Notes under the pieces: model-generated | Database searches by the model: none | Told to the model about the DNA's origin: nothing | Seen by the model: only the letters and a program-made list of their open reading frames with translations | From: Parietaria judaica | Taxonomy: Eukaryota > Streptophyta > Magnoliopsida > Rosales > Urticaceae | Direction of reading: 5' to 3' | Length of the DNA: 64,000 bases | NCBI GenBank assembly: GCA_954871525.1 | Contig: OX940870.1 | Span: 15,593,501-15,657,500, forward strand | Translations under genes and position numbers: made by a program | In this document: positions 19,628-60,325 of the stretch, one piece after another | How the letters are laid out: each line of letters begins with the position of its first letter | Position numbering within the stretch: position 1 is the stretch's first letter

Positions 19628-19630
19628 GTA

Positions 19631-29015: not shown

Positions 29016-29305
29016 GGGTTAATTGTAGCAAAAAGACCTAAACTTTGATCAAACTCTTCAATGTGTACACAACCTTTCTAAATGGCGGTCATAGTACCCA
29101 AACATGACATTTGGGATTTGACCAACAACCTTCTTCCAAAATCACTACTCACACGTTATCCAGCCGTTAGAAATTGCCCACATGATCAAACCCTACTCGC
29201 TGACGAGGAAAATAATTGCCACGTGTATTGGACACGTAAACATTTTTACCAAACTCAAAAAATCAGAATTAAATCATATTTAAAAAAAAAGCGAATAAAT
29301 AATTT
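29016..29305 (+). repeat. Left terminal inverted repeat (about 290 bp)
   Basis: Starts GGGTTAATTGTAGCAAAAAG. Read on the opposite strand, 58720-58430 follows it throughout: CCTAAACTTTG-TCAAA, AAATGGCG, ATAGTAC-CAAA, TTTGGGA-TTGAC, GCTGACG-GG, TTGCCACRTGTAYTGGACACGT, AACTCAAAA, CAGAAYTAAATCATA. Length and divergence fit an old MULE terminus. Confidence 0.8.
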
Positions 29306-29511
29306 TTTAGGAAAATAATTAAATGAAAAAAAGCATAACATTAATTAAAAACAAAACATTAAAAACCTAATATTAAACCACGAGTTCAAAAAATTAGGGC
29401 TCCTTCTCCATTACCATCGCCATCTTCTTCATCGACACCTATTCTCCTCCCCCGCGGTGGACGGCTTATTGCTTCGTCTGAATCCAGTCTTCTTCTTTCG
29501 AGCCACGTCGA

Positions 29512-29652
29512 ATGGATATTCAGGGTTTGCTTGGGTTAAGCGGCATGGAGAACTCGGAGGTGGGAATCTCGCCGGCGAATCATTTACCAGAGAGGTCGAG
29601 AGTTTTGAGGAAAAAGAGGTTGAATGAGAAGGAAGCGAGCGAGGCCAATTAG
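29512..29652 (+). CDS. Small ORF of unknown identity (46 aa)
   Basis: MDIQGLLGLSGMENSEVGIS at the start, then a Lys/Arg-rich tail and a stop at 29650. It lies in a GC-richer island (29440-29650) preceded by a CT-rich, UTR-like stretch, the look of a captured first exon. I do not recognise the family; its closeness to the antisense LRR fragment makes a separate capture plausible. Confidence 0.3.
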   Translation: MDIQGLLGLSGMENSEVGISPANHLPERSRVLRKKRLNEKEASEAN

Positions 29653-29654
29653 CC

Positions 29655-29880
29655 TGCTTGGTCCCGACTCGTCCTCGTGGTCACACTTGAAACCGCACGT
29701 GAAGGTCCCGGAAAAGGCCGTGTCGTAGGCGTCGTCGGATAAGTCCTACGTGGCAAAGAACGTACCGAGACTCAGTGATTTGAGGTCCAACTCGGCCTTG
29801 AAAGCCTTGAGCACCTGGATGTCTCTTTAGTAAGTCTTGGCGTCCACTTTGAGCACGACAACGATTGTAACTGAAATTAA
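29655..29880 (-). pseudogene. Captured N-terminal fragment of an LRR protein
   Basis: On the minus strand the frame reads VVVLKVDAKTY, a stop, then RDIQVLKAFKAELDLKSLSL, followed by GTFFAT, a stop, DLSDDAYDTAFSGTFTCGF and CDH. This is the layout of the N-terminal LRR-capping region of plant LRR receptor-like proteins, which start with a signal peptide, then a D...LKAFK helix and a W.F..DPCD...F.CGF.C motif. Two in-frame stops sit where Trp would be expected (TGG to TAG type). No leucine-rich repeats follow, so only the start was captured. Orientation is opposite to the other cargo. Confidence 0.62.
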
Positions 29881-29959
29881 TAACTTTGAAAAAGATTGGT
29901 ACTTTGACCCCATTTTGTGATTTCTTTTGGGGGAAGACGATGGATCGAGATAGAACCAA

Positions 29960-30860
29960 TTCGCTAGAAGACCTTATTTTGGATTCTGACTAAGCTCGCG
30001 GCGTCGTTATATCATTTAATTTCTTTTAAAATTATTTTTAAAGCCCAACCACTCTGATAATTATTTTAGAATTATTTTTAAACTCCAATAAAAGTATATG
30101 ACGAATTTGCCCCTCTTTTTTATTCTGCATTAAATAAAATCACGATTTTACCGTTTAGGCTGTTGGATATTTTTTTTTCATTTCCGCATGACGGTTTTTA
30201 TTCTCTTTCTTTATTCTCGAACCTGCGGTTTCTTTCAAATTTGACACAAGCAAATTATTTCCTTCCTTCTAGCCGTAATTTGGTTTTCTTTGTTCTCTTA
30301 TGCTGTGTTTGTTTTCTTTCGAGAACGAAGACGTTTCACGAGTATCCTCACTTTACCCTTCAACCATTGTCTTCAACAAACCAACTAAATGGAGGTAAAT
30401 GTCGGTTCGCAATATATAATATAATCTAAAAGTTTCTCATGTGAATGTTACTGTTTGTACTTGTAATGATGTTAGTGTTTAGCGGTAATTTTGGATATTG
30501 TTTACGAATAAGAATGATGCATGCAAGAACGCATGCAATTAAAAAAAATAACGATGTTAGTTAGGGTTTTAGGGCCTAATACAAGAGATTGTCTGTGAAG
30601 ATAAAAATTTAGTCTGCTATCTGTAAGTGTCGGTTCGTAAATATATTATCTTAATTTTTCTCATGTATAGGGCTACTGTTTGTACTTGTAATGATGATAC
30701 TGTTTGACAATTAATGCCAAAATTGATTACATGTATAATTATCTAATGATGCATGCAATTAATATCGCTATACGCTTGGGGATGATCCATTACCGCTCTC
30801 CTCTTTGGGTTGCATCATTACCAATAAGATGCATTATTTTTTTAATAAAATAATCATTAA
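29960..30860 (+). other. MULE interior spacer with diverged direct duplication
   Basis: No recognised gene. Two diverged copies of a block starting GTCGGTTCG (30401 and 30629) share TTTTCTCATGT, ACTGTTTGTACTTGTAATGATG and TGATGCATGCA, so a unit of about 228 bp has been duplicated. An 88-codon frame at 30163-30429 is T-rich and unlike any family I know. Confidence 0.5.
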
Positions 30861-30869
30861 TTTATGATT

Positions 30870-32932
30870 CGTTTTTTTTCGCGGAAATAACTATATACTA
30901 TCCTCCGACCGGATGAGTTGTACGATTGTGAGGTCTTCACTGAATAAACAAACATCTTGACGATCACGAATATCATTAAGGAGAACCTGACAGTAGGGGA
31001 AGCTGAGTGGTTTCGGAGCACATAATTTGGGCCTCTATTTGATGTCCCCACCAACTACGAGTACTCTCTACAGCTGTTGGAGTTTGTTTTCGAGAAAGAC
31101 TGCACAACAAGAACCATTCCAGCTGTGGATGTTGGTGAACAATGTTCCACTACGATACGGGGTTCGAGAATTTTCCATCATCACCGGGCTGAACTGTGGA
31201 CCCGAGTCAAACGTTGAAGCTATTGTTGGATGCAACATTGAAGATAATGATGCATTCATGCAAAGGATGTGGCCATATGCAGGCTTTTCGGTCACATTAG
31301 CAATGCTGAAGTTTAAATTTGATAACAGTCATCTCCATCCGATTGTGAGTAGCGACGACAAGAAAAGGTTGGTATGCCTTTTGTTCATCTTTGGAGTGTT
31401 GTGGTTGGAAATAATTGCAGTTAAATAAAATTGAGATAGCTTCAAGCGGGTCAAAATGTCGAACACTTGAGACGAACGGTCTATCCAATTATCAGGATTT
31501 GTTCCGACGTTGAAACGTTATGTAAAACATCTATATTGATAATAACCGTTATGAATATTGAATTCAATTTATTACGTTACAGATTAATTGAAATTTATTA
31601 GTAGCCGTTATAGAATTGATTGGCAATTAATTCATTGTCTCCTTCCCGCATCTATATATTGAAGTGACATCGAACCCATTCGACACACCACAATCGAAAT
31701 CACTTTCCAAAATCTCTCTAGAAACTATGAGTTTACTTCCCGGTTTTTCAATCCGGAAACTCAAATTTTCATGCTTCCTAATGTTTTATGTCGCGAGTCT
31801 TTCGGTAATGGAGTTCAAGAAGGTTCAGTTCGCCGGTGAACTTCAAAGTGCTACGGAGTTCTCAGTCATCCCGTTATATCCTGGGAAGCTATCGCCTAAT
31901 AACGAACCTCAATCACGTAGATGAGGCAAATCAAGCTTTAAGGAGAGCATCCAACGCGTCTCGGGAACCGCTTACTGTTTTCTCTGTTTTACAGGATTGA
32001 AAACACATGATCGGATCAAAGCTACAAGTCGATACTCGTCAAAGCCAAGAACACAAAGATATGTATCATCGAATCTCTTCGCTACTATTTTTCGTTATTT
32101 TTTTCTCATATATCATCATTTATGAAAATATACCCAACAGTTGTTACCCCATCCTGGTGAAACTAATTTGCCTAGGACATTCTTGTCCTTCGCGGAGGAC
32201 CTTGACGTATTCGTTCAATATCCTTGAGGTAAAAGTCATTCATGTTATCGGTACAGATTCTTTGCAAGAAAGCATTTAGGGAGTTGTGAAACAACATCCC
32301 TAGAAAACGAGCAACAGGGCCACCGCAGATCCCGACGATGATGTTTCCACGGTTAATACACTCATTATTGGTATATATGTAAATGTTTTAAGTTATTTAT
32401 TTACAATCGACATGTCATGTATGAATTTAATATGTTAAATTCATGCAGATTGTGGCATACGAGTATTTGCCTAGTCTGGCACATGTCTTAGCCAACCCAC
32501 GAGAGTCCGAGGAGGCACCTCGTATGTGCAAATTGACAACGCGGCTAGTCGGGAATATCGATCTTCATCGCCTATCAATTCGAAATGCTTTTTTGCATGG
32601 AGCTGATTCGAGGGTCGGTTTCTCTATTATAAATTTAACAATATAAACTATTATTTGGGAAAATAACTATACTCTTTAATTTGCAGGGAAAATTCCGTGT
32701 ACTCATTCCTACGGAGATGGAAGTTGCGTTGTCGCATATGAACTCCCTAGATCATCCCCTTTTTCATAGAATCCACATGTTAGAGATGCTCGTGCAGACA
32801 TTGGAACACGGTGAAAGATCGTACAGCGAGCGCATGACCCGCTGCCACTCCTGCCACCGCCACATCCACCATCACCGCCACCGGAGTCCGAAAAAGCCAC
32901 TTATTCTAGTATTTCGAGTTGGTCGCATTTAA
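30870..32932 (+). pseudogene. DUF1985 (ULP1-associated) gene, decayed
   Basis: Plant-specific DUF1985 gene of the kind found fused or linked to Ulp1 SUMO-protease-like genes and often carried by Kaonashi-type MULEs. An upstream piece reads ENLTVGEAEWF...FGPLFDVP with stops. After a frameshift comes the core QLWMLVNNVPLRYGVREFSI, ITGLNCG and RLVCLLFIFGVLW (31090-31430). Downstream, LSFAEDLDVFVQYP (near 32180-32225), then the exon IVAYEYLPSLAHVL...APRMCKL (about 32449-32614) and the exon KFRVLIPTEMEVALSHMNSL (from about 32687), match the post-DUF1985 region of these genes. A His/Arg-rich tail follows. I see no Ulp1 catalytic His-Asp-Cys domain. Frameshifts and stops make it non-functional. Confidence 0.68.
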
Positions 32933-33556: not shown

Positions 33557-34402
33557 ATGGAATGCACTTCAAACCACCTTCCTGAAGACCTCGTTTTCGA
33601 CAAGATCCTATCAGAACTTCTAGTGAAACTTCTGATTAAATACAAGAGCTTCTCGAGAAATTGGCGCGCTCAAATATTCGGCGACTCCTTGTTCATCAAC
33701 ACGCATAAAATTCGTCGACAGCCTAGAAACGGCCCAGTCCTGATTGCAGCGGCATACTCAATGACCTCCAACAAGTAATACTAGCTCTTTATGGCCAAAG
33801 GGTGACTGAAATAGACGTGTCGTATAACTACACAAATATTACAGGTATTTCAGTATCGTAGGCGCCTGCAACGGATTACTATGCATGTCTTTCAAGGCGC
33901 TCGAGATGCGACTTGTGATTTTCAACCCGACAACTCAACAAGTGAGGAAGCTTCCCGTTCCAGCAGCATATTCACCTCTTTTTATTAACCATGAGGAGAT
34001 AGATTTCACATTTAACATCAAGAGCAACGACTACAAGTTTGTCTAGTTACGCACAACCAAGGAGTCGTCATTCGTGTGCGCACAAGTGTTTTTTGCCAAA
34101 AGCGAAATGGCGTGGAGAGACTGTGGGTCCTTGAAAATATCAGGGCAAGATTTTTGGTCATCGAGCACAGTAACGGTAGATGAGGTTCTTTATTTGGCGG
34201 TTTGGTACAGTTTCTAGGATGTACAAACTATTACTTTTGATCGGCGGGACGAGGTTCTTCGTCTCGTTGAAAATGCTTCGGAGCTTTGGACAGTCGAAAG
34301 GCCGGTGATAGAGGACTGCTGGAAAAATGTATGGAGCGCGTAGCATGGTATATATGTTTCGTACATCCATGACTACGTTGAGCACATGGTCTCTATGTTT
34401 TG
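33557..34402 (+). pseudogene. F-box / F-box-associated (FBA) protein pseudogene
   Basis: Two-exon F-box gene, whose intact homologs are SCF ubiquitin-ligase substrate adaptors. Exon 1 (33557-33774) begins MECTSNHLPEDLVFDKILSE and holds the F-box (LPEDLV-ILSEL-VK-L--YK--SRNW). A GT-AG intron (33775-33844) joins in frame to exon 2. Exon 2 reads YFSIVGACNGLLCMSF, VIFNPTTQQVRKLP and later FDRRDEVLRLVENASELW, the FBA domain. In-frame TAG at 34044 and a later shift disable it. The family's typical LPVKSL is read here as LLVKLL. Retention of the intron shows a DNA-level capture, not a retrocopy. Confidence 0.8.
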
Positions 34403-35060
34403 AATATGTATAGCGGTATGGTATAAGTTATATATTTAAAATGTTATGTATAACGGTCTGAATTTGTGTTTTGAATTTATATAGTGGTTTTATTATTTAA
34501 TGCATATTAACGGTCTGGATAGTAGCATAACCAATTCGTATAGCAGAACTAATTTGTACAGCGGTATTAGTTATGTCGTATGTATCACTATATTATTTAA
34601 ATGTATAGCGGTTTGATGTCTCATGCTTTCTATAACATTTAACAAAATCTAATCGATCTAATTTTGTGTTTTGAATATTTATAGTTGTTTTGTAATTTCA
34701 TGGATATTAGCGGAACTAATTTGTATAGAGGTATCAGTTATGTCGTATATCACTCTATTTTTTCAATGTATAGCGGTTTGATGTCTCATTCTTTCTGTAA
34801 TAACAATTAACAGAATCGATATTGATCTTAGTTTGTTTTTTGAATATGTATAGCGGTTTGTAATTTCATCGATATTAGAGGAACCAATTTGTATAGCGGT
34901 ATCAATTATGTCGTATGTATCGCTATATTATTTCAATGTATAGCGGTTTTGTAATTTCATGGATATTAGCATAATTGATTTGTATAACAGTTTTGTAATT
35001 TTAATGGATTTAGCGGAATCAACGTGTATAGTGGTATGGAAATTTTAATGGATACTAGAA
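34390..35060 (+). repeat. Tandem array rich in TATAGCGGT words
   Basis: About three diverged copies of a unit of 170-210 bp, marked by TTTTGTGTTTTGAAT-like starts near 34455, 34662 and 34835. They contain TGTATAGCGGT, GATATTAGCGGAA and GTTATGTCGTATGTATCAC words. Its complement ACCGCTATA recurs at 54.4-54.8, 56.2-56.4 and 57.5-57.9 kb. Confidence 0.7.
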
Positions 35061-35228: not shown

Positions 35229-35792
35229 GGCCGACTCCATCAACAATGTCGATATGGAGTCTTCCCTACGCCAAATGTGGTCTGTTACCAGCAATTGCTG
35301 GATGAAGAGGATTTAAAATACCTTCGGTGTTGAGGCGAGGAGCGCAAGATTTTTTATTTATCGCATCTCGTATCTTCATTGGAATGGGGCGGAAACCTTA
35401 GATTTCAGTACCCTGGAACCTCCAGAGTTTCAGGATTTTGTTGTGCTTTGCCGTTGACGGCAGAACATATAGTGACAGGGGCGTTGTTGCCTTTGCACGA
35501 ATTCTTCATTAGGTTCTACTACTCAATCGAGTTGTTGCCTTACCAGTTAGGTCCCGATACTTATAGATTCCTATCAGGTCTCCGTGTAGTGCACTTCCTG
35601 TGGCGGGGTCGGCTACTTACTAACGATATGTTTTAAAAGTATGCGGTCTGGTGCGGGTCGGAGGTCCGTTGTACGAGATAAAACCGAACACCGGATTTGG
35701 GGAAGTTTTCAGGGAGGAGGAACATGTGTTCGATCATTCCTTCAAGGAGGAGCACAACTTCTACACAACGGGGGTGCATGCTTTGGAGGTGA
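35229..35792 (+). pseudogene. Plant gag-like/mobile-domain gene, 5' part (split by LTR)
   Basis: ATG at 35229 opens MADSINNVDMESSLRQMWSV and stops after 29 residues. In another frame LPLTAEHIVTGALLPLHEFF, YYSIELLPYQLGPDTYRFLS and GLRVVHFLWRG follow. These are the signature of the plant gag-like family often labelled putative gypsy-type transposon or plant mobile domain. The sequence is cut at 35792 by the solo LTR and resumes at 53823. A related domain, in better condition, occurs on the antisense strand of the Tat element at 41.1-41.7 kb. Confidence 0.5.
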
Positions 35793-38382
35793 TGTTGGAC
35801 ATGTGTCCTTAAATAAACTGTATTTTCCGTTATTATAAAATATTTTGGCCAAAGTTGTTGAATAAGAGATGTTACTTATTATGTTAATCATATTATAGTT
35901 TCTGGTAGAGTAAAATATAATGTTTGTTCCATAGTTCAGAAAGGATGCAATTATGTTATTATTATCACAACCGAGTCAATGTGAGGAAGAATTAATAATC
36001 ATAACAAATGAAATTAAAATGACTGTGACTTGATTAACTGAGTGGGAGCTCATTAATCGCATAAAGTCATTAACGTGACTAAGTGATTTAATCCTATTAT
36101 GGATTTAAAGTATGTGTCAAACTCACTAGAAGTGCATTAAGTATGAAACGGCTTCATACTAGACTGGAACTGACTTAAACTCCGGAAGTTGTCATATAAG
36201 ACCGTCGTTGACAACTTGGAGTTGAGTCACTTGTAGATAATCAAATGGATATTCAATCTAAGTCCTGACTGACCTCGATCCTGGACTGGTGACTTGATTG
36301 TTCTTTGATTTAACTGTGAAAGAACACATTTACTGTTGTTCTTAATGATGCTATTTTGGGAACATGATAGTTAACAGAAAAGGTAGCTTGGTCATAGAAA
36401 CAGACATCACATAGCTCTCTTCAGAGTAAGATGAGTCCCTTGATTGTTAGTGGTGAGAACTGAGAGGTACCCGTGCACAACTTATGAATCGAAACCATAA
36501 TTGGGTTACTCACAATATTACTAACTGAGTTGATGATGATAAAGAAATGAGAGGCAAAACGGTAAAAACCGTCTGCTCGTGTGTGGATCATCAAGTGAAA
36601 GATCAATTACCTGAATTTGATTGTATGAATGGACACTTTTCTATAAAGAGAATAATATATACGGTATCACTACAGAGTTCAACCGCGAGTTTATAGTTGA
36701 ACAACAAGGAGGTTTGACGAACCACTAGCACATCGTTGGAGCTTAGGTGATACGGGTCCTTGGTCCCCAGGATAGCTCTGGATCGAATGATACCTACGTG
36801 ATTTAAAAATTTGATATGTTTTATCATTTTTTTCAGGATTCATAAACCTAAAGTTTGTGTTAGTTTTTGGAATTTTATTTTTGAAGTGGCAAAAGTACAA
36901 AAGTTTGGTACAAGAAATTTAACTGATAAAAGAAAGTTGTTGGCTGTCTTATTCCCAGGAATCCCCATTGATTTATTGTCGATCACCCTATGGGTGCGTA
37001 GGGTAATCTTCGAAAAATATTTCGGCGATTAGAGTCCCATACCAATAATCTTGTTACCTTATATGACTCGTAAGATTCAAAAATCAATCTTCCTGATCGT
37101 TGATATTCAATTTTTGAATTCATTGAGCCTTTGGGTATTAATAAATAATTACTCTACCAATAAATAATGTTGCGTATGTTTTTGATGATTTTGATGCGCA
37201 ACTCTGATCTTGATTCTTATCTCCGTTCTTTGCGGTTTTGAGCTCCTGCGAATTTATCTTGATTGAATCTTGAAGATAGCTCCGACGAGTCTTCCGATGT
37301 ATACTCCGGATCTACGTTGCTGGGATGAGTGGGCTCTTACTGACTAAAAACCTAAACCCTAATTCAAATTTTCTCTGAATATTGGCTCAAAGAAAATCGC
37401 AGAAAACGTTTGAGAGAGAAAGAGATCAAAATCTGAGAGTGAGTGTGTGTGTTTTTCAATTTCAGGTGATCACTATTTATAGGGAATGGCCTAACCGTTT
37501 TTTAGAATGTATCTCAACCAATTGTGAGAGATTTACTCAACCGTTTGGACATATTCACTCTAAGATATTTAATAATTAAATCAAATAAAGAATAAATCCA
37601 AAACAAATCTTTCTAGAAAATACCCTAAAATATTTAATAAATCAAATCTTTATATTTTCAAAGATTGAATTCGAATTTTATAATCATATTTCAAATTCAT
37701 TTGCTCGATTTATATATTTAAGTATTGTTGACATGGTTTCGCTCGCCAACGGTCAAGTGAATTGTGAATGAGATTTCGATTTGAAGATGCTAAGATGTTT
37801 TTTGGATCCTGACCTCCGCGTCGTCAATAATTTTGACGATGACACACGAATACAAAGGACAAAGAAAATAAATGAAACACCAGAGTTTTTTAGAGAGGTT
37901 TGTCCCAATGCGGTAGTTGACTACATCCTCTGTACGTTTATTGCTTTAAAAGATATGATCAATCGGAACCACAAGTCAATCCCTGATAGATCGAAAATAA
38001 AAGAAAAACACTCTGAAGATACGAACTCTCATAGACTCTTTTCTCTCAATGGTGGATGCTTGCGTGCGTGTTGATGGGCTGCCTTCTTGCTTTTATAGGC
38101 GTCTGGTTTCTGCCCGTTGGAAGTGTACGTTCGTGGTGGCTCCGATTTTGGGGATTAACTTGTTGCCGAGCTGACACGTGGGCCACGTCCTGCGAGATTG
38201 GCGTAGTGGTAGACTTTGACTTGTCGTCGAGGGGTTTGAATTTGAATCGTGGCGATTTTTATGGTCAGGCTTCGAGAGTTTGAATTGAGGTGGTTGACTT
38301 GGTATGCTTGTGTTCGGATGTTGGGCTTTCTTCTGCTCAGGCGCTTTATTCTGCTTCTGCTCGGGTCCCTTTGAGACAACCA

Positions 38383-39962
38383 GGCTTTGTTTGTTTGCGC
38401 TGATTGAGCATCTTAATGGCCCTTAAATCTGTTTCGGTCAGATTTGAGACCAATAAGACCTTTTTTTTTAATAAAGCATCTTAATGACGCTTAACTCATC
38501 TTATTCGGTCAGACCTAAAATCCACGCTTATTCATTCAAACCCAAATTTTCCACCTCTTTCTCTTTCTTCTCTTTCTTTCTCCCTCTGTCGTAGCACCTC
38601 ATTCATCAAATCTGGAAAAACTTGTGGCCTCGCTCCTCCAACCGTGGTCAACTTCCGTCGCCGACCTTTCCCGCCTACCATCGCCGACCTTTCCCAGCCA
38701 CCACCGCCGATCTTTCCCGACCACCGTCGCCGACCTTTCCCAGCTACCATCGCCGACCTTACTCAGCCACTTTCGCCGACCGTACTCAGCCACCATCGCC
38801 GATCTTACCCAGCAACCGTTGCCGACCTTACTTAGCCACCGTCCATGACCTTTCCTCACCGATCATCGTGGTGATTTTTCTGGTTAATATTTTTCCTAAT
38901 TTTTTCTAGGTTTGTTTTTCTTATTTTTTTAGCTGAGTTTTTTTTTATTATCATTTTTGGTGTTGCTCAGCATTTCACTTTGGAATTTATTTTTTATTGG
39001 CTATCAGATTCATAGCTCGAATTAGGTTAAAAAAAAGGTTGTATTATACGATGTTAAACATATATGTCGTGTGAAATTCTAATGGATGATGCTTCTTTTT
39101 CTTCTTCTAAATTTTTAGCCAAATTAGATACAAGTCGATGTTATCATAATCATTCTTCCAATTATGTATGTTCTTCTATTGGAGATCTGTTTAACCTTTC
39201 TAAAAAATTCTTGCCTTGGATTATTTGATTTTTCTTTATCTTTAAGTAGTTTAACATCTCATGTATTTGGGCATGTACTCTGTATATTATATATTTGATT
39301 CTAAATTTTGGGTGTTTTAAGTTTGTTGATGAAGCTTTATTTCTTAACAGATTACATGGATTTTCAAATTAAGCTTATATGCTTATTGGTATTGTTGTGG
39401 TATAAACATCGATTTCAACGCAATTATGTAAATGATATTTGAAGAAGAAGTCTCGGAAGAACAGTCACAAGAGAAATCTCTTTGGGGAGCTGAAGATGCA
39501 CAAGTCATGGATAATTTACGAGCAGAACTTGCACTCAAATTAATGCAGAGAAAAAGAAACAATTGATGTTTGATGCTAGTTTTTTAAATTATTTTTGTTT
39601 AATATTAGTTGTCGTTTATTAAATAATTTGTGAATGAAGAATTCTAGAGCTTAATATATCAATATCTTAATATGAAGTATTATTTTTATATCAAATATTT
39701 TAAATAAGTAATTCATCAATTATTTATATACATATATTAATTCATTTTTCTCAATTATTTATATTTATTAATTTTATATATACATGATCCAAAGTATATT
39801 AATAATTGTAAAAAAAAAATTAAACTGCATTAAGACCTTAAAAAAACAAACAGACTTAAAATTTTCATCATTCAGATTCAGATGTAACATCTTAACATTC
39901 AGATGTGCATTCAGATTCAGACGTCTTAATCTTAAAAAAAAAAAAAAAAAACAAATACAACC
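38383..39962. mobile_element. Small DNA transposon (PIF/Harbinger-like) inside the LTR
   Basis: Absent from the other LTR copy, so its edges are exact. It begins GGCTTTGTTTGTTT and ends AAACAAATACAACC, imperfect inverted ends. The flanks CCA (38380-38382) and TCA (39963-39965) fit a 3-bp target duplication. A 44-codon frame at 39432-39566 (IFEEEVSEEQSQEKS, AQVMDNLRAELALKLMQ) vaguely resembles the C-terminus of a Harbinger transposase. The rest is a CT-rich leader, a minisatellite and AT-rich DNA, so the element is non-autonomous. Confidence 0.5.
38655..38848 (+). repeat. 24-bp GC-rich minisatellite
   Basis: About eight copies of CGCCGACCTTTCCCAGCCAC-type units with small changes. Because 24 is a multiple of three, all frames stay open and code for low-complexity Pro/Arg/Ala-rich peptides on + and Gly/Trp-rich peptides on -. 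It sits after a CT-rich leader-like stretch (38545-38590). Confidence 0.8.
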
Positions 39963-40311
39963 TCAGTCTGGGAAGCGCCTTGGGTGTTGGATTAAACCAA
40001 GTGTTGTTTTTAAGTGGGACTTTGAGTTCTACTCGGAATTATCCTTTGAGAATCTCTGTCCGGTCTTCTTTTAAACATATTCTGCTCGGGTGATTATTTT
40101 GCCTTCTGGGATTTTCATTTTGCTCGGGCCCGAACACGATTAAGTGCATAGTGGGCTTCTGGGCTTTGTATTTCATAAGCCCAATTATATATGAATATTC
40201 AATTATACTCACAACTTAGGCCATAATCAATTTAAATTATAAATTTAATTAATGACCTCATAATTCCGATTGAGGAACGAATTTGCACATCAACAGATAG
40301 CCCCCTACTAT

Positions 40312-48695: not shown

Positions 48696-50492
48696 CTATG
48701 GTGTAGATTCGCCCAATGGCTTCCTCGGCCATTGGCTCCTCCACATCTTCCGACTCTTGGTCGGCCTGCTCTTCTGCCATGAGGAATTTTCCTCGTTTGG
48801 GAGGAGGAGCGTTGTTTGGTCTGGCCGATTGCTTCTGCTCGGGCTTCGTGCCTGTGCTCAGTCTAGCATTGGACTGTCGGGTTTGTCTGTACGCTCGCCC
48901 TCCGACCAGAAGAAATCCAGCGGCGAGCTCGACTATAAGGTACTTATCGGCTAGCCGGGCCCGTAGGACAATGCAATTCCTTGTATGGTGGCCATACCTT
49001 TGGTGGAAATCACACTATGCGCTCATGTCCCTGTTGTTGGGCGCCATGTCACCGGCGCTCATGTACAGCTCTTCTTGCTCGTTGGCTTCGGTTTCTTCCT
49101 CGGCCTCCGAGCTCAGATTGTAGACATGATTATGGGGGTGTGCGCTTCCCCCGGGGTGGTTTCCCATTCCTTGATTTGGGTGGGTGCGCCCCGGGCCTTG
49201 GTGCGTTCTTGGATGGCCCGAACTTCCTCTTTAGGGATTCGTGTTCTTCATCATGCTTAATCCAATTGGATGCACGATGGATCACGTCCTCTTTTGAGGT
49301 GTACCTATTGACCAAAATATCGGTCTTGAATCGGGAATCGTACCATAATCCGTTGGTTAGGGTGGCTATGGCCGTTTCATCTGCTAGTCCGTTGATTCGG
49401 ACCATCTTGGCCTTGAACCTCGTCATGAAGTCCCTGAGAGGCTCGTTTGCCCTTTGTTGTAGGGCGTACAAATTTTCCACGGTGGTTTCAGTCTCCATAA
49501 ACATGGAGAAGTGTTTGAAAAACACCATGGTCAGCTGACCGAAGCTATCGATCGAATTCGGTTCTTATTTGGAGAACCATTCCATTGCTTCCCCTGTGAG
49601 GTTTTCAGCGAAATACTGGCATCTCCCAGCATCCAGCTCGTGGATATCCAGGTTAGCCTGTCCTATGGCTATTCGGAATGCCCTCAGGTGTACCTTCATG
49701 TCAGTGGTCCCGTCGTATTTGGGTATATGAATCTGCCCGCCGTGCCTTAATCGAATGTCTGTGATTGCCGTTGAGAATGGATTTATTGTGGATTCTTCGG
49801 CCAGACGCTTGATCTCAGGAGTGGCAGATACAGCTTGGTGTATTTGGGAGTCCACTTTGGAGAGTTTTTCTCCCATTCTCTTCATGGTCCGTTTGAGCTT
49901 TTCCAGCTCGGAATTGTTTCGGGGCGCTGGTTCAGTTTAAGTGCGCTGGGAGTATGGGCCCGCTTGATTACTCCCTGAAGGTCGGGAGTAACCGTTTGAC
50001 CCATGGGGGGAAGGTAGTTCAGGATCTCTGCCCGGGATGGTATCGAGAATTGAACTCCGGTCAGGCGATTGCGCGATGGCTGGTTGCGAACGCCGGGGCT
50101 TGGAATCGAGGGGTGCTGTGCTTAGGCGGCAGAGGGAGCGCGTCCTCCGGCGGATCCGCCGGCTGGGGCGAAGTGCTCGGGCGCGGATCTATTGGAAGGG
50201 GCGCTTGATTGGTTCTCTGGGCTCGGGGATCGTTGGGGTCCTGGAATTCAAAGTGAACCATATTTACCCTCTCGTGATTCCTTTGCCCAGAGGTCTGCCC
50301 GATTTCGTTCACAGAATAAGGTGTCTGTTCGAACCGGGTCTGGCTGCTTATGAGGAGCTCAATTTTTCTTCTAAGCTCAACATTTTCAGCAGCCTGTTCT
50401 TGGAGGTGAGTTCTTAGGGCCTGCTCTTTGGCATTCTGGTCGGGGGTTACCTCGACCAGAGCGTCAGAGGCATGATTCTCCTCGGAACTCAT
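48696..50492 (-). pseudogene. gag: Tat element gag
   Basis: Minus-strand gag starting MSSEENHASDALVEVTPDQN at 50492. An N-terminal coiled coil and Pro-rich stretch come first. After a frame change (near 50061) comes HIPKYDGTTDMKVHLRAF...AEAMEWF-like, then an in-frame TAA. The retrotrans_gag core continues: NEPLRDFMTRFKAKMVRING and DILVNRYTSKEDVI (49528-49130). A second shift leads to CDFHQRYGHHTRNC (about 48965-49010), the C-X2-H-X4-H-X4-C knuckle of Tat gags, and an acidic tail. Not functional. Confidence 0.85.
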
Positions 50493-50534
50493 GGTTGTGT
50501 CTTAAGTACGACAGAGTTAGCAGGATCAAAGATT

Positions 50535-50551
50535 TCCCACAGACGCCGCCA
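50535..50551 (-). other. Tat element primer binding site
   Basis: On the minus strand TGGCGGCGTCTGTGGGA, three bases from the 5' LTR end. It differs by one base from TGGCGCCGTCTGTGGG, which I associate with Arg-tRNA priming in Ogre/Tat elements. Confidence 0.75.
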
Positions 50552-50554
50552 AAC

Positions 50555-51515
50555 TGTTGACGTGGTTTTGCATGCCAATGGTCAAGTGAATTGTGAATAG
50601 GATTTCGATTTGAATATGCTAAGATCTTTGTGGATCCTGACCTCCGCGTCGTCAATACTTTAGACGATGACACACGAATACAAAGGACGAAGAAAATAAA
50701 TTAAACACCAGAGTTTTTTAGAGAGGTTCGTCCCAATGCGGTAGTTGACTACGTCCTCTATACGATTATTGCTTTAAAATAGATGATCAATCGGAACCAC
50801 AGGCCAATTCCTGATAGATCGAAAATAAAAGATAAACACTCTGAATATACGAACTCTCACAGACTCTTTTCTCTCAATGGTGGATGCTTGCGTGCGTGTT
50901 AATGGGCCGCCTTCTTGCTTTTATAGGCGTCTGGTTTCTGCCCGTTGGAAGTGTACATTGGTGGTGGCTCCGAGTTTGGGGCTTGACTTGTTGCCGAGCT
51001 GACACGTGGGCCACGTCCTACGAGTTTGGCGTAGTGGTGGACTTTGACTTGTCGTCGTGGGGTTTGAATTTGGATTTAGGAGTTTGAATTGAGGTGGTGG
51101 ACTTGGTCTGCTCATGCTCGGATGGTGGGCTTTCATCTGCTCGGGCGCTTTATTTTTCTTCTGCTCGGGTCCTTTTGAGACAATCAGTCTGGGAAGAGCC
51201 TTGGGTGTTGGATTTGACCAAGTGTTGTTTTGAAGTGGGACTTTGAGTTCTGCTCGGAATTATCCTTTGAGAATATCTGTCCGGTCTTCTTTTTAACATA
51301 TTCTGCTCGGGTGAACATTTTGCCTTCTGGGCTTTTCATTTTGCTCGGGCCCGAACACGATTAAGTGCATAGTGGGCTTCTGGGCTTTGTATTTCATAAG
51401 CCCAATTATATATTAATATTCAATTATACTCACAACTTAGGCCATAATCAATTTAAATTATAAATTTAATTAATGACCTCATAATCCGATTGAAGAACGA
51501 ATTTTCACATCAACA
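50555..51515 (-). repeat. 5' LTR of the Tat element (961 bp)
   Basis: Complete LTR, TGTTGACGTGG to CACATCAACA on the plus strand. Core promoter TATAAAAG on the minus strand at 50925-50918. Very similar to the left LTR outside the 38383-39962 insertion, with scattered substitutions and short indels. Confidence 0.92.
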
Positions 51516-53822
51516 AGTATTTTTGGTATAAATACTAATACTTAACTTCTCTTATTTTCGATTTAAATAATAGTATCTTATTTAATATAAGTTAAAATCT
51601 GTTATTATTATAAATATCAAACCGTCTGTCAGAATGACACGATTCAAAAAGATAATTGTACAAAAAAATAATTTCCCACAACCCTAGGGATGTATTAGGA
51701 TTAAATTCAATCATCTTTTTACAGTTTCTGTACTGGCAAAAAGTTTTGTACTTTTGCCACTTTAGGATGATCATGATTTTTCATGTAACCAAGTTACAAA
51801 TCATATTGATCGATTCTATTCTATGTTCTAAGAAAATAATTTGTATTTGCGGTTTCGATCTTATGGAGCTACAAAGGGGACAAATGGAGACACATACTTA
51901 AGCTTCAGTGAAAGTGAAGAACTTTCACCAACTTCGGTTACAATTCCACAATAGCCCAAAGCTGAACTCTTAAGTATGCGTTAATTATATCTTCCTAATT
52001 CAAGAATCCATTGATACAATATGACTATCGAGAATCCAAGTTTTCCAATTATTATGATTCTTGTCTTACTAGGGTTGATCTCCGTAATCCCGTTTAGACG
52101 ACACTAGTTTTGTTTCTATTATTCTTGCAAAGTTACTCATCTAACGGTTTATGAAGTCATAGGGCTCCAATAAGTACTTCTCAGCTTCTCATAAATCGCA
52201 ACAAAAGAAATCATAAAGTTATTATTCATATCTGAAAAGTTGTTGAAAATTAAATTCTAAAAGACTTTGCTTTTAGAACCGAGTCGTTTTGACATATGAT
52301 ATATGATTTAGAGAATTTGAAAGTTTACGATCGTTTTTTGTAAATGTGAGAAATTTAATAACATGTCACAAATTTAAATGGTGGTGTTGCACCGCGACAT
52401 TTGTTGTGTGATATTGAGATCAGAAATTAAATTATATAATTTAATTATATGGATTTAAATTTAATTATTAATATTCTTATTGATAATTAATTAATAATTA
52501 ATAAATTTATATTATATAAATAATATATATATATATTTGGAATATATATGAAAGTTTAAAATTAATGCGGCCAAGTAAATGGGTGAGTTGGGCTCACACG
52601 AGTTTTCTTGGATTTGGACTTTCCAAATATGCGGCATAAATACCTATGTTTAGGTTTGAATGGAAAAACCTTGAAATTATCTTGTTCATTAGATCGGCCA
52701 CGTTTAATCTTAACAGTTGTATCATGATAATTAATTTGGAAACCCTAGTTCAAAAAAGACTTGGTAACCAAGTATGGATTTCAAAATTTCTTAATTAATT
52801 ATATCCATTGGATTAGTTTAATATTTAATCTTAACCATTGGATTGGAAATTAATTAACATGTAAATATGGAATGCAAAGTACGAGTTTATTATAAGGGAG
52901 GTCAAATTCTTTTGCTTGGTAATCAAGTTTGGAGAGTTGACTTTGTTCTCGATCAATATGGTCCATTAGATTGGTTATGGAATTAATTCCAACCATTGGA
53001 TCAAGGTTATTAATTTCAAATTTTTCATATGGGTACATAGGGAATTAAAATTGTATTATATATGGAAGTGATTGGGTAATTGATTTATTCATAGTTTCCC
53101 TATTTGGTTTAATCTTTAGTTAATTATAACCATTGGATCTTTGGTGATTCAATCTTGGCCATTGGTTTGGAGTGATTAATTATATTTGCCGATTATAGAA
53201 ATCTAAATTCAAGGAAGGAAACTTCCTTATTGGTTTTTTCATGAGCTTATAAATACAGGCTCATTCTACACATTTTATACATCTCTCCACAAAACAAGAA
53301 TTCGATTTCTCTCTCTAGAGTCTGCAAATTTCTTAGCCTCTGATATCTTTTTCTTGGTTCGGCTTAGTGAGACGTTGTTCTACGAAAGCTGTTAAAGAAC
53401 ACTCAGTTAAAGTTTTACGACGAAGTCCTGCCGGAGAAGCCCACGCTTCGGTACGAGGAGTCAAATAGAATATCCCGGAAGATCACGGGAGTTTCCCTCA
53501 GCATCGGCGAAGCCCTACCCAGTTCAGAACGCAACCAGAATTGTCATCACCTGAGGTACGGCGTTATGCATTGGGTCAATAAATGCAATCCTTTATTTCA
53601 AGTTCATTTATTTCCTATAGACTAAATTTTTAATAATGAATTTATGAAAAGTTAAATTAGGAATAATTTACCAGATCTTCATTTTGGTTATTATCCGATA
53701 GTCAGTTCGTTGTACGGATAACAAGTTTTTTGCTTTAAATAATTTTTATTAAATATTACTCGGACGGTTTGACGACATAAATCATGATAATATGAACGGG
53801 AAACGTAATAAACTTCCCAACA

Positions 53823-54340
53823 GGTGAGTCGGGTGCCTCTGGGCAATGCGATGCAGGACAGACCGAGGAAGCCAAAAGTATTGCCGTTGTGGATCGTAAT
53901 GTTTTACCGGGGGAAAGGAATCCAAACCGGTTCGTGAACACCGAATCTGTGCATGAATGTGGCCTGATACAATGGTATCACAATATTGAGAAGCTACCCA
54001 CTAATACGTTTGAGGATAGTGTGCACCTTCGTTTGGAGGATGAGGGGAATGGGTTCTGTGTAGGCATCCCTACCCCGGTCATATAGGTATTCTTGGGTGC
54101 CTCTCAATGATTGATGATGAAGCGACTCACCCTAATGCTTCCCAGCACCGCAATCATTTGTATATAGTGTACTAATCTGGACCATAGGGTGGCATCGTAC
54201 ATGGTACGGGCCTCCTCCCCCTCGTGGGTCAATCTGTTCGTGGGGTCCTTACTTATCACCATAATCGTGTGGATATGTTATCACCACTATGATTTACATG
54301 ATATAGCGGGCATGTGCATTTAACAAGCGAATTAGCTTTC
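53823..54340 (+). pseudogene. Gag-like/mobile-domain gene, 3' part
   Basis: Begins with the second GGTGA target copy and continues the reading broken at 35792. Open codons run to TAG at 54084 (VDRNVLPGERNPNRFVNTES, RLEDEGNGFCVGIPTPVI). Beyond this a frame reads SPSWVNLFVGSLLITIIVWI, a membrane-like stretch I cannot identify. The join is inferred from the target-site duplication. Confidence 0.4.
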
Positions 54341-54344
54341 AGTG

Positions 54345-54845
54345 TGTGTAACTTGTAGTCCTGCTGTGTTTTAGTAAAATTGCCGCTAGTGATTGCAGGT
54401 AACCGCTAATACTATGCATATAGAGATTTTGAGTTTTAAGTCAATAATTTTATTTTATTTTCCTTACTAATTAAATTAGTATATAGTTTCACATGTTTAA
54501 AAATAAATAGTTAATCAAACAAACAAGTGATGTATTAAATCAAGATACAAATCGTAGTCCCACTATGCTCTAGTAAAATTACTGCTAGTGTTTGCGAGTA
54601 ACCGCTAATACTACGCATATAGCGGTTTTGAGTTTCAAGTCAATAATTTTTTTTTTTTACTAATTAAATTAGTATATAGTTTCACGAGTTTAAGAATAAA
54701 TAGTTAATCAAACAAAAGAGTGATGTATTAAATCAAGATACAACTCGTAATCCCGCTATGTTCTAGTGAAATTACCGCTAGTAATTGTGGGTAAGCGCTA
54801 ATACTATGCATATAGCGGTTTTGAGTTTCAAGTCAATTAATTATG
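54345..54845 (+). repeat. Tandem repeat, about 195 bp, 2.5 copies
   Basis: Units start GTAGTCCTGCTGTG (about 54355), GTAGTCCCACTATG (about 54553) and GTAATCCCGCTATG (about 54748). They share CCGCTAGT, GTAACCGCTAATACTA, CATATAGCGGTTTTGAGT and AAATAGTTAATCAAACAAA words. Confidence 0.82.
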
Positions 54846-55158
54846 CGTAGGGATTCTTTAAATCTTCATCGGTTTTACTCTTTTTGAAAATTCTGGAAAA
54901 CGCTGAAAATTAAGGAGATAAAATAATAAACGAATGCATACAATTATTTCTTCTATTAAATACCATCCTAATGCCTTTAATTTCATCGTTGAAGACGAAC
55001 AATATTCTTAGCACCTAATTGCGATAAATGTGAAGTAATCTTCCTTTACCCCTATATATACTTGTAGTAGTTTAATGTGCGGATACATTTATTACTTTCA
55101 TCCATATATCTCCATAATTATAATCGCAATTTGAAGGCCAACAAGTATTCAGACCGCT
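54846..55158. other. Upstream region of BRCT copy 1
   Basis: AT-rich. A CCCCTATATATACTTGTA promoter-like stretch near 55050 recurs before copy 2 near 56730, so the duplication unit includes upstream sequence. Confidence 0.5.
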
Positions 55159-55913
55159 CCCAGTGGATTCCTCTCACCGAAGATTGAGATTTTGTTTTCA
55201 ACGTCGAAGAATGAAACAAATGTATTTATCTTCTTTTATTTGTAGTTTTATATTAGATCAAGGGTAAGATGCTTATAGTTCAATTGTTCATTTTTTAGGA
55301 TCTCTTTCGTAAGTTTGCGCAGTCGAAAGGGTATGAATATTCCATCCCGTGGGATGAAAATGTGACCCATCTTATTGTAGAGACAGACAATCAAAGAATA
55401 TGCACACAGAATCATAGATTATTCATGCCAATCCTCAAAGGATTATGGATTGTCCAAACTGTACGTAAATCCTATGACCTTTTAATTTTTGTATTCTAAT
55501 TTAACCTTAATAGAATTTTATATCTGCAGGGGTAAATCATGCATAGACGCTGAATCAATTGTAGATGAAGCGCCTTATGAGATCATTCAAGACTCTAATG
55601 GTCGAAGATCGCGCCAGCTAAACGCTATCAACAATGTAAGTTATTCACCAAATAGATCGTACACTATTACACTACTCGTAGATTATAAATGACAATTAAT
55701 TCATCTTGCCCTTTAATTATAGGCCCCGAAGCTCTTTGCCGCGATCAAATTTTTTTAGTCGGCTACAAGAGCCCTTGGCTAAATCATGTCCAATCTGTCG
55801 TCATACAAGGAGGAGTGATCGTTGTAAAAAATGAGGAAGAGTTTTTTCAATTTTGTCAAACTGATAGGGTTTTTATAATTTTCAACGACGATGTCGTGGA
55901 GCAGTTTTCATAA
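55159..55913 (+). pseudogene. BRCT-domain gene fragment, copy 1 (BRCA1/BARD1-type)
   Basis: Captured fragment of a tandem-BRCT gene; intact BRCT pairs of BRCA1/BARD1 bind phosphoproteins in DNA repair. Candidate exons: 55299 to about 55460 (LFRKFAQSKGYEYS, NVTHLIVETD, ILKGLWIVQT), 55530-55635 (CIDAESIVDEAPYEI...RSRQLNAINN) and 55723-55913 (LVGYKSPWLNHVQSVVIQGG, FFQFCQTDRVFIIF). The exon joins use GT/AG, and the wording W-V.SCI.A...DE.PYEI then APKLF..IKF.LVG is that of plant BARD1/BRCA1 C-termini. A T7 run at 55750-55756 is one base short of keeping the third exon in frame, and the second BRCT repeat is incomplete. No ankyrin, RING or PHD parts. Confidence 0.68.
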
Positions 55914-56395
55914 ATGTTAATCATAAAGAAGCAATTAGAATGTCGAGAAGACAGTCCGGCAAGAGTGTAAGGACACCGTTTGTTTTTGGATTCCATTGCA
56001 GCTTTTAGTTTGGCTGTTTTTGTTTGAGTTCTTAATATTTAATGTTATGTTGTTATCTTTTATTTCGAATTTTTATATTATTATATAAACTCGTTATTTA
56101 TCCTAGAATTTTTTTCTTTTATACCGTATATAATCTTTTCATTTATACAATTTTATATATTATTTACCGTGTAATATATATTTTCATTTATACCATCATA
56201 CCGCTACTTAATCTTATCATTTATACCCTCACACCGCTATATAATGTTAATATTCGTCCCTTTTTATTGTTAATATTTATTAAAGCGATGACCTTGTACA
56301 TTTTTATACATTTATAGGTATTTTATATGTATACCACTATATGTAATTTACATTGAATATTTATAGCGCTAGCACAACGGCGGTATCATTCATAA
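55914..56395. other. Downstream spacer with ACCGCTATA words
   Basis: AT-rich stretch with ATACCGCTACTTAATC, ACACCGCTATATAATG and ATACCACTATATGTAATTTAC words. The same series follows BRCT copy 2 (57500-57870), so this spacer was part of the duplicated unit. Confidence 0.6.
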
Positions 56396-56845
56396 AATGC
56401 AATCACATAATGTTTCTAAACCCCAAGCCCTAATTCAGATAATGCACAAACTAGCTGAAGTTCTGATACAGACACTCGATATAGAAATATTAATTTCAAA
56501 ACATGGCGCTTCCATTTGGTACAAAACCATCAAACTAATGGTTCTAGTAAATGCTTATATTAATCGAACCTATATATTTATTCCTTCAAACTAACGCTTC
56601 GATTTTATACAAAACCACCAAATTAATGGTCCTAGTAAATACCACCGTTATACGGGTAACCAGATCGTTGAAAATGAATGAGTATATGATACCACTTTAT
56701 TGCAATGAATGTGACCAAATCTACCATTACCCCTATATATACTTGTATTGGGTTATTGAGCGGTTACACTAAAGCCAGTTTTCACACCACTCCACAAATA
56801 TAATCACATTTTTTTTAAGGCGAATAATTATTCACAACACTCCCA

Positions 56846-57194
56846 ATGGCTGCCTTACCCGAAATCCAACGAAGAATGAAGTTTTCTTATGCATCATTAA
56901 GGCCGGAAACTAAGGTCCCAATCTTCTTTTATTAATAATTAATCTTAGATCAAGGGTAAGATGCTTATACTTCAGTTTTTCGTTTTTCAGGGTCTCTTGC
57001 TCAAGTTTGCGGAGTCTAAAGGGTATGAATGTTCCAACTCGTGGGGCTATAATGAGGGTGTGACCCATCATATTGTAGGGATAGACGGTGACGGATTTTT
57101 CAGATGGAATCGTCGAGGTCCATCTTAGATTCCTCTTGTCGATCATGAAAGGAATATGGATTGTCAACATCGACTGTACGTAATACTATGACCC

Positions 57195-57243
<49 letters not shown>

Positions 57244-57404
57244 GTTAACCTCAATACAAACGGCTAGGGAAGCCATTAATAGGTTTTTCATAATTTGCCA
57301 CGACACTTTCATTCAGAAGGTTTGCATAAATCGTAATCGTAGAAAAGCGATGATCATGGCGAGTGGCACTCTGGCGAGGTTCTATGCACACAGTTTGTTT
57401 CCAT
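56846..57404 (+). pseudogene. BRCT-domain gene fragment, copy 2
   Basis: Second copy of the module. ATG at 56846 opens MAALPEIQRRMKF. After an acceptor the BRCT exon starts at 56991 (GLLLKFAESKGYECSNSWGY, VTHHIVGIDGDG) and meets a stop at 57126. An ATT microsatellite (57195-57243) lies where exon 2 would be. The end (INRFFIICHDTF, 57270-57404) matches the end of copy 1 after the shift. It has decayed further than copy 1. Confidence 0.6.
57195..57243 (+). repeat. (ATT)n microsatellite
   Basis: About 16 ATT units inside BRCT copy 2. Confidence 0.9.
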
Positions 57405-57439
57405 AACACCTTTTAATTTGGATGTTTTTATTTTGAGGT

Positions 57440-58429
57440 GTCTGTATGGTGATTTTCTTAATATTATTTTAAACTGCTTATTTATCTTATATTTTTTTCA
57501 TTCATAGTTTATATAATCTATATACCGCCATATATGCTAATCATTTTATTGTAAAACCGCTATATGATTTTTTCATTTATGCCACCATATATGCCCTTCA
57601 TAAATTTTAATATTTATCCTACAAGTTTGTCATTAAAACTGTATTTAATATTTTCATCTATACCTCCTTACCGCTATATAATCTTGTCATGTTACCGCCA
57701 AACCGCTATATGATATTTTCAAATAAACCTCCATATATGATCATCTTTAATGTCAATATTATTTTAAAGAGATGAAATTAATCAAAATGTTTTTTTTTTA
57801 TGTATACCGCTATATGTAATTTACATTGAATATCAATAACGAGTGATTACCGCTGTATGTAATTATTTATGGTGATTATATTTGTAAAATAGGAATCTAC
57901 ATGTATTTTAACCTAAACTAATGATTTAAGCTATAACTAATAGTAGTTAATCGTCGAGTGGGCAACGTAAAATATACAGAGAAGAAAAAAATGGCTTCTG
58001 ATACTGATCGATGTGAGAAGGAAAATCCTAGAAGAAGACAAAAAGGAAAAGAGAACGAGAAAATAGCACGGGAGAATTAATAATAAAAAAAGGAGAAATA
58101 AGAAAAGTGCAGGCAAAGTAATAATAATAAAATAAGAGGAGAGAGAATTTATATTTCGCTTTACACCCTTCCACTTTAATGAAACGTATGGGTGCAAGAC
58201 ATGAACAATAATAAGGGTATCGCTCTTTAAAACGACCACTTAAGGTAATTTTGACAATTCACCCATCGGGATAGTGTATGTGCTATAGGAGAGACCCAGA
58301 TGATCAGGTTCGATGGATTTAGCGCGTGATGATGAGAGATGTGGGTGTTTGTGGTTCGATCGATCGATAGAGAGAGAGAGAGAGAGAGAGAGAGGGTGTC
58401 GATGGCCAGAGGGTGGGTTTAATTTTTGT
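57440..58429. other. MULE right interior, no recognised gene
   Basis: Repeats the ACCGCTATA spacer (to about 57870), then purine-rich sequence (57960-58150) with a minus-strand 100-codon hydrophobic frame that looks like chance T-rich translation. A CGATCGATCGATAGAGAG tract and a (GA)n microsatellite (58368-58395) end just before the right inverted repeat. Confidence 0.5.
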
Positions 58430-58720
58430 AATTTGTATTTTATTTATTTGTTTTGATTTATGATTTAGTTCTGACATTTTGAGTTGTTATAGATGATGAC
58501 GTGTCCAGTACATGTGGCAAATATATGCCCCGTCAGCAATAGGGTTAGCCACGTGGGAGCTGTCTAACAACTGTCTAACTGGGGAACAATGTTTCTAGAC
58601 AGGAATGGTTTGTCAACTCCCAAATGCTAAATTTGAGTACTATTGTCGCCATTTATAAAATTTGTATAAACAGTAGAGACTTTGACCAAAGTTTAGGTAC
58701 TTTTGCTGCAATTAACGCTA
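58430..58720 (-). repeat. Right terminal inverted repeat
   Basis: Complement of 29016-29305 over its whole length, with the substitutions and small gaps expected of an old element. The outermost shared bases are GTTAATTG-AGCAAAA. The next nine bases (58721-58729) nearly repeat those before the left end. Confidence 0.8.

Positions 58721-60266: not shown

Positions 60267-60325
<59 letters not shown>

What the first reader, a model, noticed from the sequence alone, without database searches (positions are those of the whole stretch)
29016..58720. Candidate gene-capturing Mutator-like element with mixed cargo
About 290-bp inverted repeats enclose fragments of LRR, DUF1985, F-box/FBA, gag-like and BRCT genes and no visible transposase. 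One de-nested element of about 11.7 kb with so many unrelated captured families would be a large Pack-MULE or Kaonashi-type MULE. I do not know this combination as a described element.
Basis: partly seen in the sequence, partly recalled or inferred. Interest (0 to 1): 0.8.

Follow-up and report, generated by a model that had tools for sequence, protein, structure and literature searches.

The report
Decayed anti-silencing transposon with host-gene cargo
An old, broken plant jumping gene, split by later retrotransposon insertions, seems to carry pieces of ordinary plant genes, a relic of a known class of anti-silencing gene, and many copies of a short DNA word that such a protein may once have read.

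Summary
The inverted repeats are real: 29014-29290 and 58447-58720, about 75% alike (alignment score 192; shuffles reach 32, the rest of the window 31). They bound one element. A Copia solo LTR (35793-53822) with a perfect GGTGA duplication shows that the two arms were contiguous; a Gypsy element (37726-51515) is nested deeper. De-nested length 11,670 bp. The element's own 9-bp duplication is 8/9 in A/T-only sequence: weak. DUF1985 (E 6e-12), F-box-associated (E 4e-11, joined read) and BARD1-like BRCT fragments are supported; LRR is weak; gag-like in the arms is not confirmed; no transposase was found. DUF1985 occurs in VANC anti-silencing proteins, which bind short motifs arrayed in VANDAL MULEs. 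Best reading: a dead, TIR-bearing, VANC-type MULE with host cargo and a motif unlike the two whose sequences I could read. Not Kaonashi (no Ulp1 found). Other copies could not be sought: genome search did not complete in eleven tries.

The parts
29006..29014 (.). left candidate 9-bp target duplication ATTTATTTT
   Evidence: 8 of 9 match to the right flank with boundary 29015/58719; 2.2% of random pairs of A/T-only 9-mers in the window do as well
29015..29290 (+). left terminal inverted repeat (AGGGTTAATTG...)
   Evidence: about 75% to the right repeat, score 192 vs at most 32 in 500 shuffles
29530..29850 (-). possible LRR receptor gene fragment, GC-rich (0.53 for 29440-29860)
   Evidence: weak PDB LRR match; composition; no Pfam LRR hit
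30997..32920 (+). broken DUF1985 (VANC-type) gene; DUF1985 domain about 31090-31413; the part after it assigned by eye
   Evidence: Pfam PF09331 E 6.1e-12, 5.6e-13 on a frame-joined read; frames
33557..34346 (+). F-box/FBA pseudogene with one probable intron (by eye)
   Evidence: TIGR01640 E 3.8e-11 on an exon-joined read; Pfam negative
34409..35035 (+). left motif array (TATAGCGGT, partly in a 168-bp tandem)
   Evidence: 6 exact sites; tandem 34546-34949
35237..35792 (+). left half of an unidentified coding-like stretch cut by the Copia LTR
   Evidence: frames; a 153-codon open frame spans the empty site; no related family hit
35793..53822 (.). nested Copia solo LTR (itself interrupted), TSD GGTGA both sides
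   Evidence: boundaries and 5/5 duplication; 81% to the 3' LTR of the window's Copia element over 35793-36938
36938..52203 (.). LTR-like insertion inside the solo LTR (TGTTGG...CAACA), duplication AAAGT/AAAGA, itself split by the Gypsy element
   Evidence: 4/5; boundaries placed by eye
37726..51515 (-). nested Ty3/Gypsy LTR retrotransposon, TSD AGTAT both sides
   Evidence: LTR pieces 88.8% and 95.8%, gag, RT, RNase H, integrase, TSD 5/5
53828..54085 (+). right half of the unidentified coding-like stretch
54302..54844 (.). right motif array 1 (193-bp tandem, 54372-54844)
54942..55960 (+). BRCT copy 1 (BARD1/BRCA1-like tandem BRCT fragment with probable introns)
   Evidence: PDB BARD1 E 5e-5 on an exon-joined read; Pfam BRCT E 0.016, below cut-off
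56200..56400 (.). right motif array 2, following BRCT copy 1
56621..57215 (+). BRCT copy 2, partial duplicate of 54942-55501
   Evidence: 80.8% over 167 bp of its core, local alignment score 302; no Pfam hit for this copy alone
57510..57860 (-). right motif array 3, following BRCT copy 2
   Evidence: similar to array 2 (score 106 vs shuffle max 45)
58447..58719 (-). right terminal inverted repeat
58720..58728 (.). right candidate target duplication ATTTATTTA

Best explanation
A single old, non-autonomous or degenerate Mutator-like element, 29015-58719, 11.7 kb before later insertions. When intact it had (or used in trans) a Mutator transposase acting on its roughly 275-bp terminal inverted repeats. 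Its own DUF1985 gene encoded a VANC-type protein that bound the noncoding TATAGCGGT arrays and kept the element free of DNA methylation. It carried host gene fragments (F-box/FBA, BARD1-like BRCT, possibly LRR) between those arrays; the BRCT fragment and its neighbouring array were duplicated together. Shown here: the inverted ends, the contiguity of the arms, the DUF1985 domain, the shared motif confined to the element within this window, the F-box-associated and BRCT-like fragments, and the nesting order. Inferred: transposition by a MULE transposase, motif binding by the DUF1985 protein, anti-silencing, and capture from host genes.
For: Inverted ends. Arms contiguous: solo LTR with perfect TSD GGTGA. 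Motif: TATAGCGGT 13 of 13 in arms that make up 18% of the window (6 left, 7 right); with up to one mismatch 29 of 34 in arms (14 left, 15 right), shuffled arms mean 2.1 and maximum 7 over 200 shuffles. CGCTATA is the top 7-mer of the left arm (8) and, taken separately, of the right arm (9), and is absent from the other 52 kb; over 400 random segment pairs the same statistic reaches at most 4, against 8 here. The left array and right array 1 share no similarity beyond chance (30 vs shuffle max 34). DUF1985. Literature: VANC proteins carry DUF1985 and DUF287 and bind short motifs in tandem repeats of noncoding VANDAL sequence (PMC5735166, passages read; PMC10398659, passages read). Decay is consistent: 13 exact to 16 one-mismatch sites imply about 12% change per base, near half the roughly 25-30% divergence of the inverted repeats (my arithmetic).
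Against: No transposase and no DUF287 hit. The 9-bp duplication is 8/9 in A/T-only DNA, and a flanking TA dinucleotide fits too. VANDAL inverted repeats are listed as 46-174 bp, shorter than here. Left array versus right array 3 scores 37 against a shuffle maximum of 35, so those two are not clearly unrelated. The top 8-mers of the two arms differ (CGCTATAC is 7 left, 0 right; ATATAGCG 1 left, 8 right), while the core CCGCTATA is shared (6 and 8). No clear 10.5-bp spacing among sites (R 0.23, chance about 0.19; the highest of the periods tried was 0.49 at 11.5 bp, not tested for significance). The motif was found after looking, and many sites sit in tandem duplications, so they are not independent. 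No second copy could be sought.
Confidence: 0.68

Rival explanations
1. An ordinary large Pack-MULE: DUF1985 is one more captured fragment (from another transposon), and the TATAGCGGT arrays are minisatellites of the element without any protein that read them.
For: No transposase found; several gene fragments; broken DUF1985 gene.
Against: The same 9-base word is concentrated in arrays on both sides of the element, the left array and right array 1 being otherwise unrelated, and is found nowhere else in 64 kb, together with a domain known from proteins that read such arrays.
Confidence: 0.17
2. Two independent elements of one family whose facing outer ends survive; 29 kb and 58 kb were never ends of one insertion.
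For: The inverted repeats are only 75% alike and the 9-bp duplication is imperfect.
Against: The arms join directly at the solo-LTR empty site; each repeat's only partner in the window is the other; both arms carry the same word.
Confidence: 0.08
3. A non-MULE terminal-inverted-repeat element (for example with a TA target site) carrying the same cargo.
For: TA flanks both ends at boundary 29016/58718 (sequence).
Against: Size, long inverted repeats, DUF1985 and gene fragments fit MULEs; TA is common by chance in such A/T-rich DNA (inference).
Confidence: 0.05

Closest known systems
VANDAL MULEs with VANC anti-silencing genes (VANDAL21/Hiun, VANDAL6; PMC5735166, PMC10398659, passages read)
   Same: DUF1985 gene; short motif repeated in arrays in noncoding parts of the element and, within this window, confined to it
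   Different: motif TATAGCGGT instead of YAGTATTAY or AGTTGTCC/AGTTGTAC (those form no arrays here: 3, 0 and 3 sites in the window, of which 2, 0 and 1 in arms); inverted repeats about 275 bp against 46-174 bp listed; gene-fragment cargo; no transposase found
Kaonashi / Ulp1-bearing MULEs (KIU)
   Same: VANC-type gene in a MULE (review PMC13317346, passages read)
   Different: no Ulp1/C48 peptidase domain found here; inverted repeats present, whereas the review calls these elements non-TIR
Pack-MULEs
   Same: gene fragments between long inverted repeats, no transposase found; a GC-rich fragment next to one end (that this is typical is recalled)
   Different: carries a transposon gene (DUF1985) and its probable target arrays

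Membership tests
Mutator-like element (MULE) | long terminal inverted repeats | tested here: met
   about 275 bp, 75%, score 192 vs at most 32 in shuffles
Mutator-like element (MULE) | 8-11 bp (mostly 9) target duplication | tested here: inconclusive
   8/9 in A/T-only sequence; 2.2% chance per offset, 11 offsets looked at
Mutator-like element (MULE) | MURA-type transposase (autonomous members only) | tested here: not met
   no Pfam hit in six frames of both arms at E<=0.1; not required of non-autonomous copies
VANDAL / VANC system | VANC gene with DUF1985 | tested here: met
   DUF1985 domain PF09331 E 6.1e-12; the gene is broken and anti-silencing is untested
VANDAL / VANC system | DUF287 in the VANC protein | tested here: inconclusive
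   no Pfam hit, but the gene is broken
VANDAL / VANC system | short motif arrayed in noncoding parts of the element and specific to it | tested here: met
   13 of 13 exact sites of the window in arms, control; specificity tested in this window only
VANDAL / VANC system | absent or short degenerate inverted repeats (46-174 bp listed) | tested here: not met
   longer, about 275 bp, though degenerate
VANDAL / VANC system | transposase in the VANDAL clade | not testable with these tools
   no transposase found and no genome to search
Kaonashi (KIU) | Ulp1/C48 peptidase domain | tested here: not met
   no hit
Pack-MULE | gene fragments of host type, no transposase | tested here: met
   F-box-associated, BRCT/BARD1; LRR weak
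Pack-MULE | parental host genes present in the genome | not tested
   The genome search did not complete (eleven calls)

The most novel reading that the evidence does not exclude
A lineage of MULEs that combines three things usually described apart: long inverted repeats, host-gene cargo, and a VANC-type anti-silencing system with its own target word TATAGCGGT. The cargo sits between target arrays and has been duplicated together with an array, so captured genes would have travelled inside a region protected from silencing.
Probability: 0.35. Interest if true: 0.6.

Novelty: new variant of a known kind. Interest (0 to 1): 0.42.

Why it matters
If right, it gives a predicted protein-DNA word pair (a DUF1985 protein and TATAGCGGT) that can be tested in intact relatives, and it suggests that gene-capturing MULEs can shield captured host genes from methylation. 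It also suggests that target arrays can be recognised in elements too old to work, which would let the history of anti-silencing systems be read from dead copies.

Tried and rejected
Genome-wide search for other copies of the ends: the genome search 'own' returned 'busy' each time, so no copy number, no parental genes and no orthologous empty site. The end pattern in bacterial/archaeal contigs and in viral contigs: 0 matches each, as expected for plant DNA. Homologues of the DUF1985 read: none at E<=0.01 among 6641 candidates; that database may hold few plant proteins, and the query was broken by stops and frameshifts, so this says little. Rfam and tRNA scans of the window: nothing. Pfam scans of the flanks 22390-29013 and 58721-64000, six frames each: nothing at E<=0.1. 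A sub-threshold CrtO hit in the right arm (E 0.011, below its cut-off) and sub-threshold hits to YneP, CZB and Drf_FH3 were set aside as chance. Helical spacing of the motif: no clear signal at 10.5 bp. The motif-masked alignments are void (masked letters scored as matches) and were not used. One search's scan of the rest of the window skipped short stretches beside the repeats; one search repeated it over the window with the repeats masked, same result. Two ATAGCCGTT-like words near 12.15 kb, beside a tandem array at 11.7-12.0 kb, were looked at and set aside. A paper search for the motif drew unrelated papers (5,204 papers with at least two terms, 10 listed, none relevant by title). The paper that I recall as comparing the most VANC systems (Sasaki 2022, EMBO J) is not held, so its motifs could include this one; no claim of priority is made.
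Full report
Observation. A self-comparison of the window finds the inverted pair 29014-29290 / 58447-58720 at 74.5-74.9% over 267-278 bp, E 6e-26. A full local alignment scores 192; 500 dinucleotide-shuffled pairs reach at most 32, and the best match of either repeat to the rest of the window is 31. So each repeat's only partner in the window is the other, which argues against two separate MITEs. Alignment of the ends gives AGGGTTAATTG and AGCGTTAATTG at 29015 and 58719. The 9 bases outside are ATTTATTTT and ATTTATTTA, 8 of 9 alike. That is weak evidence: 2.2% of random pairs of A/T-only 9-mers in this window do as well, eleven offsets were looked at, and a TA dinucleotide also flanks the ends one base further in.

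Nesting. The Copia element of the window has a 3' LTR of 2.7 kb (19643-22388). A solo copy of this LTR begins at 35793 and ends at 53822 and is flanked on both sides by GGTGA, a perfect 5-bp target duplication. Removing it joins the left arm (29015-35792) directly to the right arm (53828-58719), so the two arms were one stretch. Inside the solo LTR lies an LTR-like insertion (36938-52203, duplication 4/5, boundaries by eye), and inside that a Ty3/Gypsy element on the minus strand (37726-51515, duplication AGTAT 5/5; gag, RT, RNase H and integrase).

Contents of the arms. Six-frame Pfam scans of both arms (stops as X, E<=0.1) give one hit above its cut-off, DUF1985 at about 31090-31413, E 6.1e-12 (the other hits, BRCT and CrtO, are below their cut-offs; one search gave none). 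A frame-joined read extends DUF1985 (E 5.6e-13). No transposase, Ulp1 or DUF287 hit appears. An exon-joined F-box/FBA pseudogene at 33557-34346 matches TIGR01640 at E 3.8e-11, while Pfam gives nothing. Two BRCT-like fragments (54942-55960 and 56621-57215) are related to each other, 80.8% over 167 bp of their core. An exon-joined read of the first matches BARD1 chains of the PDB at E 5e-5 and BRCA1 chains at E 1.3e-3, while Pfam BRCT stays below its cut-off (E 0.016) and the second copy alone has no hit. An LRR fragment on the minus strand near the left end is possible but weak (no Pfam LRR hit). The coding-like stretch cut by the Copia LTR (35237-35792 and 53828-54085) has no credible family match; a 153-codon open frame spans its empty site.

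The shared word. Comparing k-mers of the arms with the rest of the window singles out CGCTATA (17 in arms, 0 in the other 52 kb). It is the top 7-mer of the left arm taken alone (8 copies) and again of the right arm taken alone (9 copies). The top 8-mers of the two arms differ (CGCTATAC, ATATAGCG); the shared 8-mer is CCGCTATA, 6 and 8 copies, none elsewhere. The full word TATAGCGGT occurs 13 times, all in the arms (6 left, 7 right); with one mismatch allowed, 29 of 34 sites are in the arms (14 left, 15 right), against a mean of 2.1 and a maximum of 7 in 200 shuffles of the arms. In 400 random pairs of segments of the same sizes, the best 7-mer shared by both and absent elsewhere reaches at most 4 copies in the poorer segment, against 8 here. 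The left array (168-bp unit) and right array 1 (193-bp unit) share no sequence beyond chance (30 against a shuffle maximum of 34); left versus right array 3 is marginal (37 against 35); right arrays 2 and 3 are related (106 against 45), as expected if a unit of BRCT fragment plus array was duplicated. Many sites lie in such duplications and are not independent.

Meaning. In Arabidopsis, VANC proteins of VANDAL MULEs carry DUF1985 and DUF287, bind short motifs (YAGTATTAY for VANC21; AGTTGTCC/AGTTGTAC for VANC6) that are repeated in tandem in noncoding parts of their own elements, and remove silencing marks there (PMC5735166 and PMC10398659, passages read). The element here has the same pair of parts: a DUF1985 gene and a word repeated in arrays that, within this window, is confined to the element. 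The two published sets of words that I could read form no arrays here (YAGTATTAY 3 sites in the window, 2 in arms; AGTTGTCC none; AGTTGTAC 3, 1 in arms). I therefore read it as a dead VANC-type MULE with its own word. The proportion of exact to one-mismatch words (13 to 16) implies about 12% change per base, close to half the divergence of the two inverted repeats; this fits words and ends having decayed together since insertion (arithmetic). A 10.5-bp spacing preference, which I recall being reported for VANC targets, is not seen (R 0.23 against about 0.19 by chance; the highest of the periods tried was 0.49 at 11.5 bp, not tested further).

Membership. It works like a VANDAL/VANC element, but I do not file it as VANDAL: its inverted repeats are longer than the 46-174 bp listed for that group (PMC6446971, passages read) and there is no transposase to place. 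It is not Kaonashi, which is marked by Ulp1 (PMC13317346, passages read). It meets the loose description of a Pack-MULE, with parental genes untested. I recall, without a call, that Sasaki et al. 2022 describe at least ten VANC systems in Arabidopsis. That paper is not held, so the word found here may already be known.

Limits. No plant genome could be searched: eleven genome-search requests did not complete, and the contig collections that answered hold prokaryote and viral sequence. Copy number, family membership, parental genes and the empty target site of the element are untested. The species is not identified; that it is a plant rests on a PATROL1-like gene at 6.3-7.4 kb and on my knowledge of the families named here.

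Noticed in passing
window 13733-22388: Copia retrotransposon whose 3' LTR is 2.7 kb (19643-22388) while the 5' LTR is cut to 728 bp (13733-14460, 99% identical), followed by TGGTATCAGAGC, which I recall as a tRNA-Met primer-binding site.
   Followed up: partly
window 12369-13526: A second Copia gag open frame just upstream of the truncated 5' LTR (Pfam Retrotran_gag_2, E 2.2e-8).
   Followed up: no
window 6338-8813 (-): PATROL1-like gene (Pfam PF25761: E 9.6e-129 for 6338-7351; 8.4e-6, below its cut-off, for 8304-8813).
   Followed up: no
window 38384-39962: A 1.58-kb insertion inside the left LTR of the Gypsy element, with a GC-rich 23-bp tandem array at 38655-38840; the two parts of the LTR differ in identity to the other LTR (88.8% and 95.8%).
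   Followed up: partly
window 11669-12170: Degenerate repeats at 11669-11991 beside two ATAGCCGTT words near 12.15 kb that come within one mismatch of the element's word.
   Followed up: partly
window 35237-35792 and 53828-54085: Coding-like stretch interrupted by the Copia solo LTR, no credible family match; a 153-codon frame is open across the empty site.
   Followed up: partly
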